From Palleronia pontilimi (lineage in GTDB: Bacteria > Pseudomonadota > Alphaproteobacteria > Rhodobacterales > Rhodobacteraceae): a stretch of 64,000 bases of DNA. The notes under the pieces are model-generated. The model saw only the letters and a program-made list of their open reading frames with translations, did no database searches and had not been told where the DNA came from. Of this stretch, positions 1 to 341 are shown one piece after another. The stretch's first letter is position 1; the number at the start of each line of letters is the position of its first letter. Both the position numbers and the translations under genes were made by a program. Location of the stretch: contig NZ_JAEKPD010000016.1 in assembly GCF_016412875.1 (NCBI RefSeq), positions 1 to 64,000 of the forward strand, in the 5' to 3' direction.

Positions 1-341
<341 letters not shown>

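What the first reader, a model, noticed from the sequence alone, without database searches (positions are those of the whole stretch)
231..245. In-frame amber codon at position 35 of tuf
Codon 35 of the str-operon tuf is TAG while the EF-Tu sequence on both sides is intact and in frame. No other tuf gene is in the window; in particular none lies upstream of secE, a common second site. Either this copy is a fresh pseudogene backed by another tuf elsewhere, or the base is wrong, or the codon is read through.
Basis: partly seen in the sequence, partly recalled or inferred. Interest (0 to 1): 0.7.

Follow-up and report, generated by a model that had tools for sequence, protein, structure and literature searches.

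The report
Stop codon in contig-end tuf fragment
The stop codon reported in this bacterium's EF-Tu gene is there in the sequence, but it sits in a gene fragment at the end of a draft contig, within one of two near-identical gene copies, and is most likely an assembly or base-call fault, less likely a dead spare copy, and very unlikely a stop that the cell reads through.

Summary
Codon 35 of tuf is TAG (window 237-239, minus strand). (1) Window base 1 is base 1 of draft contig C8, so tuf is cut off after 341 nt; its middle was found in no readable contig. (2) The rest is not intact: codon 25, the P-loop lysine, is Thr, and Ile45 is Leu. In 84 distinct tuf stretches codon 25 is Lys in 84 and codon 35 is never a stop. 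Reading through the amber would still give EF-Tu without its P-loop lysine. (3) The genome has two tuf sites: two contig ends share the same 41-nt tuf 3' boundary before different genes (rpsJ; a CorA-family gene), and the second copy's 5' flank ends about 3 nt before its expected ATG. Most likely the consensus is wrong in this unresolved two-copy repeat; the three damaging changes are transversions to G or C within 60 nt. A real inactivated copy backed by the second tuf is the main rival and is not excluded. Read-through is very unlikely: RF1 is present and no CUA tRNA is among the 43 tRNAs seen (an incomplete set). Reads were not available.

The parts
1..341 (-). 5' fragment of tuf (EF-Tu), 113 codons plus 2 nt, cut by the start of contig C8
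237..239 (-). codon 35, TAG (amber)
   Evidence: relatives TAT/TAC/CAG, never a stop in 84 distinct stretches
267..269 (-). codon 25, ACG (Thr) where the compared relatives have the P-loop lysine of GHVDHGKTT
207..209 (-). codon 45, CTC (Leu) where the compared relatives have Ile
   Evidence: Ile in 83 of the 83 distinct stretches that cover it, of 84
90..92 (-). codon 84, GTC, private synonymous change (GTG in 16 of 16 distinct relatives' stretches)
1..41 (-). contig-terminal 41-mer; 41 nt is the commonest length shared by two contig ends in this assembly, but this end shares with no readable end, and no second copy within 3 mismatches is in the readable assembly
431..2557 (-). fusA (EF-G), intact open frame upstream of tuf in the str operon

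Best explanation
The amber is most likely not a codon of the living gene. The genome carries two tuf genes, near-identical as in its genus-mates, that a k=41-type short-read assembly did not resolve. Contig C8 runs 341 nt into this repeat and stops, and the consensus in that overhang carries wrong bases that give TAG at codon 35, Thr at codon 25 and Leu at codon 45. Shown: contig end, two tuf sites, 41-nt shared ends, tuf middle not found, private changes. Inferred: that the copies are near-identical here, that the assembly is a short-read k=41 one, and that the bases are wrong.
For: Window base 1 is contig base 1. Two tuf 3' boundaries lie at contig ends before different genes and share exactly 41 nt; among 63 N-free contig ends, nine other pairs share exactly 41 nt, 8 pairs 40 and 8 pairs 39, and none of the pairs shares more. 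In the 7 genus-mates with two full copies, the tuf copies differ at 0 to 14 of 1176 positions, so they form an assembly repeat; 6 of 13 genus-mates have tuf pieces cut short in their drafts (G001, G004, G005, G007, G010; G012). K25T and the amber lie 31 nt apart in a gene where 7 genus-mates have 0 or 1 private replacements over 113 codons. The three damaging changes are transversions to G or C (A>C, T or C>G, A>C). A-to-C is cited as the most frequent Illumina error in early data (PMC3334598, passages), whereas G/C-to-A/T transitions were the commonest mutations in the bacteria studied in PMC2936535 (passages). fusA next door is intact.
Against: Other contig ends look sound: of 63 readable ends (of 128; the rest too short or N) scanned for a stop inside a coding frame, only this one was flagged; inner parts of the same ends gave 0 of 63 and internal window segments 2 of 150. 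That test has little power for scattered substitutions. None of the 37 other partial EF-Tu pieces listed in the search of 59 relatives has an internal stop (its list was cut). If C8's overhang were plain repeat it should have stopped about 41 nt in, as the two 3' ends do; running 341 nt suggests that the assembler saw it as distinct from the other copy. C8's and C5's tuf-side ends share no terminal sequence with any readable end, so the 5' side of the repeat is not explained. Several errors in a de Bruijn consensus are uncommon (my knowledge). The sequencer used is unknown, and the change at codon 35 is of the A-to-C type only if the codon was TAT.
Confidence: 0.55

Rival explanations
1. Real inactivated copy: the str-operon tuf has lost its P-loop lysine and gained an amber, and the second tuf, between a lipoprotein-like gene and a CorA-family gene, supplies all EF-Tu.
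For: A second tuf site exists. Each tuf can be inactivated in Salmonella Typhimurium without lethality, at a growth cost (PMC3938759, passages). C8 stays a distinct path for 341 nt into tuf; no other readable contig end was flagged for a stop in a coding frame (1 of 63) and none of 37 other partial tuf pieces listed has a stop.
Against: Where a bacterium has two tuf copies they are nearly identical, for which gene conversion is assumed and in Salmonella was shown (PMC1780047, passages); copies within 7 genus-mates differ at 0 to 14 of 1176 nt, and no EF-Tu row listed for the 59 relatives has a stop (list cut). The second copy's 5' flank contig does not run on into a diverged tuf of its own, as I would expect if the copies really differed over the first 300 nt. 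The three damaging changes are transversions to G or C, unlike the usual mutation spectrum.
Confidence: 0.4
2. The amber is read as an amino acid (suppressor tRNA or reassigned TAG) and the gene makes working EF-Tu.
For: The frame continues in EF-Tu on both sides of the stop. The tRNA set seen is incomplete.
Against: Codon 25 has lost the P-loop lysine, which contacts nucleotide phosphates in M. tuberculosis EF-Tu with the same residue number (PMC9529903, passages). prfA (RF1) is present over cut-off. None of 43 tRNAs has anticodon CUA, though no tRNA-Tyr or tRNA-Ile was among them. TAG ends 13 of 35 long window ORFs chosen by codon bias.
Confidence: 0.02
3. The fragment is a chimera: C8's end was joined to tuf sequence from another strain or organism in the sample.
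For: It has several private nucleotides (8 of 341 not seen in 16 genus-mate rows) and Lys40, a residue seen in the 3 distinct stretches from outside the genus but in none of the 13 from genus-mates.
Against: The closest of eight genus-mates in tuf and in fusA is the same genome (G007, 92.7% and 85.3%), the changes at codons 25 and 35 would be damaging in any EF-Tu, and recorded contamination is 0.
Confidence: 0.03

Closest known systems
Duplicate tuf genes (tufA/tufB) kept alike by gene conversion
   Same: Two tuf sites in this genome; genus-mates with both copies whole carry near-identical pairs (PMC1780047 passages)
   Different: Here the only visible 5' piece carries an amber and a P-loop loss; the middle and the other 5' part could not be read
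Draft-assembly breaks inside two-copy tuf
   Same: 6 of 13 genus-mates have tuf pieces cut short in their drafts
   Different: None of the 37 other partial pieces listed has a stop
Viable single-tuf mutants of Salmonella (laboratory)
   Same: One active tuf is enough for growth (PMC3938759 passages)
   Different: Those are made mutants; here it would be a natural loss, unproven

Membership tests
EF-Tu (TIGR00485), working member | Score over the curated cut-off of 522.4 bits | tested here: not met
   216.9 bits over model positions 1-118; the gene is cut by the contig end, so this says little about the whole gene
EF-Tu (TIGR00485), working member | P-loop (G1) GxxxxGK[ST] | tested here: not met
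   GHVDHGTTT at codons 19-27; Lys at codon 25 in 84 of 84 distinct stretches
EF-Tu (TIGR00485), working member | Open frame without stop | tested here: not met
   TAG at codon 35
EF-Tu (TIGR00485), working member | Domains 2 and 3 | not testable with these tools
   The rest of the gene was found in no readable contig
Stop-codon read-through or TAG reassignment | Lost RF1 or a CUA-anticodon tRNA | tested here: inconclusive
   prfA present; no CUA among 43 tRNAs, but the set lacks tRNA-Tyr and tRNA-Ile and so is incomplete
Stop-codon read-through or TAG reassignment | Product otherwise functional | tested here: not met
   P-loop lysine replaced; function inferred from sequence
tuf pseudogene with backup copy | A second tuf locus in the genome | tested here: met
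   Second 3' flank (C10) and second 5' flank (C5) found
tuf pseudogene with backup copy | Backup copy intact | not testable with these tools
   Its coding sequence is not readable in the assembly apart from the last codons
tuf pseudogene with backup copy | Lesion supported by reads | not testable with these tools
   No reads available

The most novel reading that the evidence does not exclude
The str-operon tuf of this Palleronia genome is a true dead copy, hit at the P-loop and by an amber, and has escaped the gene conversion that keeps duplicate tuf genes alike, leaving one tuf outside the str operon to make all EF-Tu.
Probability: 0.38. Interest if true: 0.3.

Novelty: not a real feature. 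Interest (0 to 1): 0.12.

Why it matters
It shows how a contig end inside a duplicated essential gene can look like a biological oddity. If the lesion were real it would be a natural case of tuf copy loss and of incomplete gene conversion between duplicate tuf genes, which is of modest interest.

Tried and rejected
Read-through: set aside because of the P-loop loss, RF1 and the tRNA survey. Whole-gene decay: cannot be judged, only 341 nt are present. General contig-end decay: a codon-usage scan flagged 1 of 63 readable ends, this one, so stops are not widespread at ends, but the test has low power for substitutions. fusA comparison: the gapped blastn alignments make the fusA private counts rough (own 10 of 632 codons with all eight genus-mates; genus-mates 0 to 16), so I lean on tuf only. 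A scan for relatives of the Hint-domain ORF found none. A fusA scan kept 80 named loci (of at least 592 matches); one of them (L081, Palleronia pelagia DSM 26893, contig length 476309) equals genome G007's contig C8 in length and so names the genus. Of these 80, 48 reach far enough into tuf to show codons 25 and 35. Papers: PMC9529903, PMC3938759, PMC1780047, PMC3334598, PMC2936535 and PMC10265787 seen as passages, PMC10777565 as outline only; PMC10265787 and PMC10777565 are not used. Other papers were seen only in search listings.

Full report
What is there. The window is bases 1-64000 of contig C8 of a 3.72-Mb draft in 64 contigs, 98.98% complete, contamination 0. tuf lies on the minus strand with its ATG at 339-341 and runs off the contig after 341 nt. 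Codon 35 is TAG at 237-239. The 34-aa piece before it and the 78-aa piece after it each match EF-Tu models in the same register, so the frame is right.

First, the contig ends inside the gene: 113 codons of about 391 (length in a genus-mate) are present. Second, codon 25 is ACG. This is the lysine of the P-loop GHVDHGKTT, which contacts nucleotide phosphates in the M. tuberculosis protein (PMC9529903, passages seen). In 16 distinct relatives' stretches (27 rows; 13 distinct from genus-mates, 3 from other genera of the family; gapped or shorter alignments dropped) codon 25 is AAG in 16, codon 35 is TAT (12), TAC (3) or CAG (1), and codon 45, here CTC, is ATC or ATT in 16. In a wider set, 129 loci were searched, giving 97 rows and 84 distinct stretches, some of them two copies of one genome: codon 25 is Lys in 84 of 84, codon 35 is Tyr (36), Val (32), Gln (7), Thr (4), Phe (3), Leu (1) or Ile (1) and never a stop, and codon 45 is Ile in the 83 that cover it. 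An EF-Tu made by reading through this amber would still lack its P-loop lysine.

How unusual. Over 113 codons the fragment has four private replacements at otherwise invariant sites (25, 35, 40, 45) against 0 or 1 in each of seven genus-mates (an eighth covers only 67 codons and has 1). Codon 40 (Lys for the genus's Arg) is ordinary, since Lys is the commonest residue there (26 of 84). The three damaging changes, at nt 74, 105 and 133 of the gene, lie within 60 nt and are transversions to G or C.

Two tuf sites. In the seven genus-mates with both copies whole, the two tuf genes differ at 0 to 14 of 1176 positions; in two more, cut short, at 4 of 542 and 3 of 201. In this genome contig C20 ends with rpsJ followed outward by the last codons of tuf, and contig C10 starts with the same tuf end followed by a CorA-family gene. 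These two ends share exactly 41 nt and then differ. Among 63 N-free contig ends ten pairs, this one included, share exactly 41 nt, 8 pairs share 40 and 8 share 39, which looks like the k-mer of a de Bruijn assembly (inference). The lipoprotein-like gene (my naming) that precedes the second tuf in a genus-mate lies at the start of contig C5, 68% identical, and C5 stops about 3 nt before the expected ATG of the second tuf, judged from genus-mates. The tuf-side ends of C8 and C5 share with no readable contig end. The middle of tuf was not found in any readable contig; part of the assembly is withheld from view and was not pursued.

Organism. The species of the window was not determined.

Error or dead copy. 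For an error: the place (overhang of a contig into an unresolved two-copy repeat), the cluster of damaging changes, and their type. A-to-C is cited as the most frequent Illumina error in early data (PMC3334598, passages), while G/C-to-A/T transitions were the commonest mutations in the bacteria studied in PMC2936535 (passages). The sequencer of this genome is not known to me. For a real dead copy: C8 runs 341 nt into tuf rather than stopping 41 nt in, which suggests a path distinct from the other copy; a codon-usage scan for stops inside coding frames flagged only this one of 63 readable contig ends, with 0 of 63 inner parts and 2 of 150 internal window segments flagged; none of the 37 other partial EF-Tu pieces listed for 59 relatives has a stop (list cut); and one active tuf suffices in Salmonella (PMC3938759, passages). 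Against it: the second copy's flank does not run on into a diverged tuf of its own, and duplicate tuf genes are nearly identical, which is ascribed to gene conversion (PMC1780047, passages). I put the error at 0.55 and the dead copy at 0.40. Reads would settle it.

Read-through. RF1 is present over cut-off. None of 43 tRNAs has anticodon CUA, though no tRNA-Tyr or tRNA-Ile was among them, so the readable set is incomplete. TAG ends 13 of 35 long ORFs of the window chosen by codon bias. With the P-loop lysine gone as well, read-through would not rescue the gene; 0.02.

Verdict.

Noticed in passing
window 17826-17972 (in the minus-strand ORF 17682-18068): A 128-aa ORF has a long Ser-Glu-Ala repeat built on a 9-bp tandem unit (14.8 copies); no Pfam family over its cut-off.
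   Followed up: partly
window 3845-5026, + strand: A lamin-tail plus Hint-domain protein (LTD and Hint_2) sits next to the rpsL/rpsG/fusA genes on the other strand; a scan of genome contigs confirmed no relative.
   Followed up: partly
locus L085: A record titled Oceanobacillus sp. HTM 045 has fusA 83% identical to this one and sits among Rhodobacterales hits; its contig length, 1211499, equals that of G017:C292, a genome classed in the window's family, so the record looks mislabelled.
   Followed up: no
genus-mates G002, G003, G006, G008, G009, G011, G013: The two tuf copies differ at 14, 14, 1, 4, 4, 10 and 0 of 1176 positions: homogenisation between copies is uneven across the genus.
   Followed up: partly
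own genome, tRNA survey: No tRNA-Tyr and no tRNA-Ile is among the 43 tRNAs found in the readable assembly; they may lie in parts not readable.
   Followed up: no
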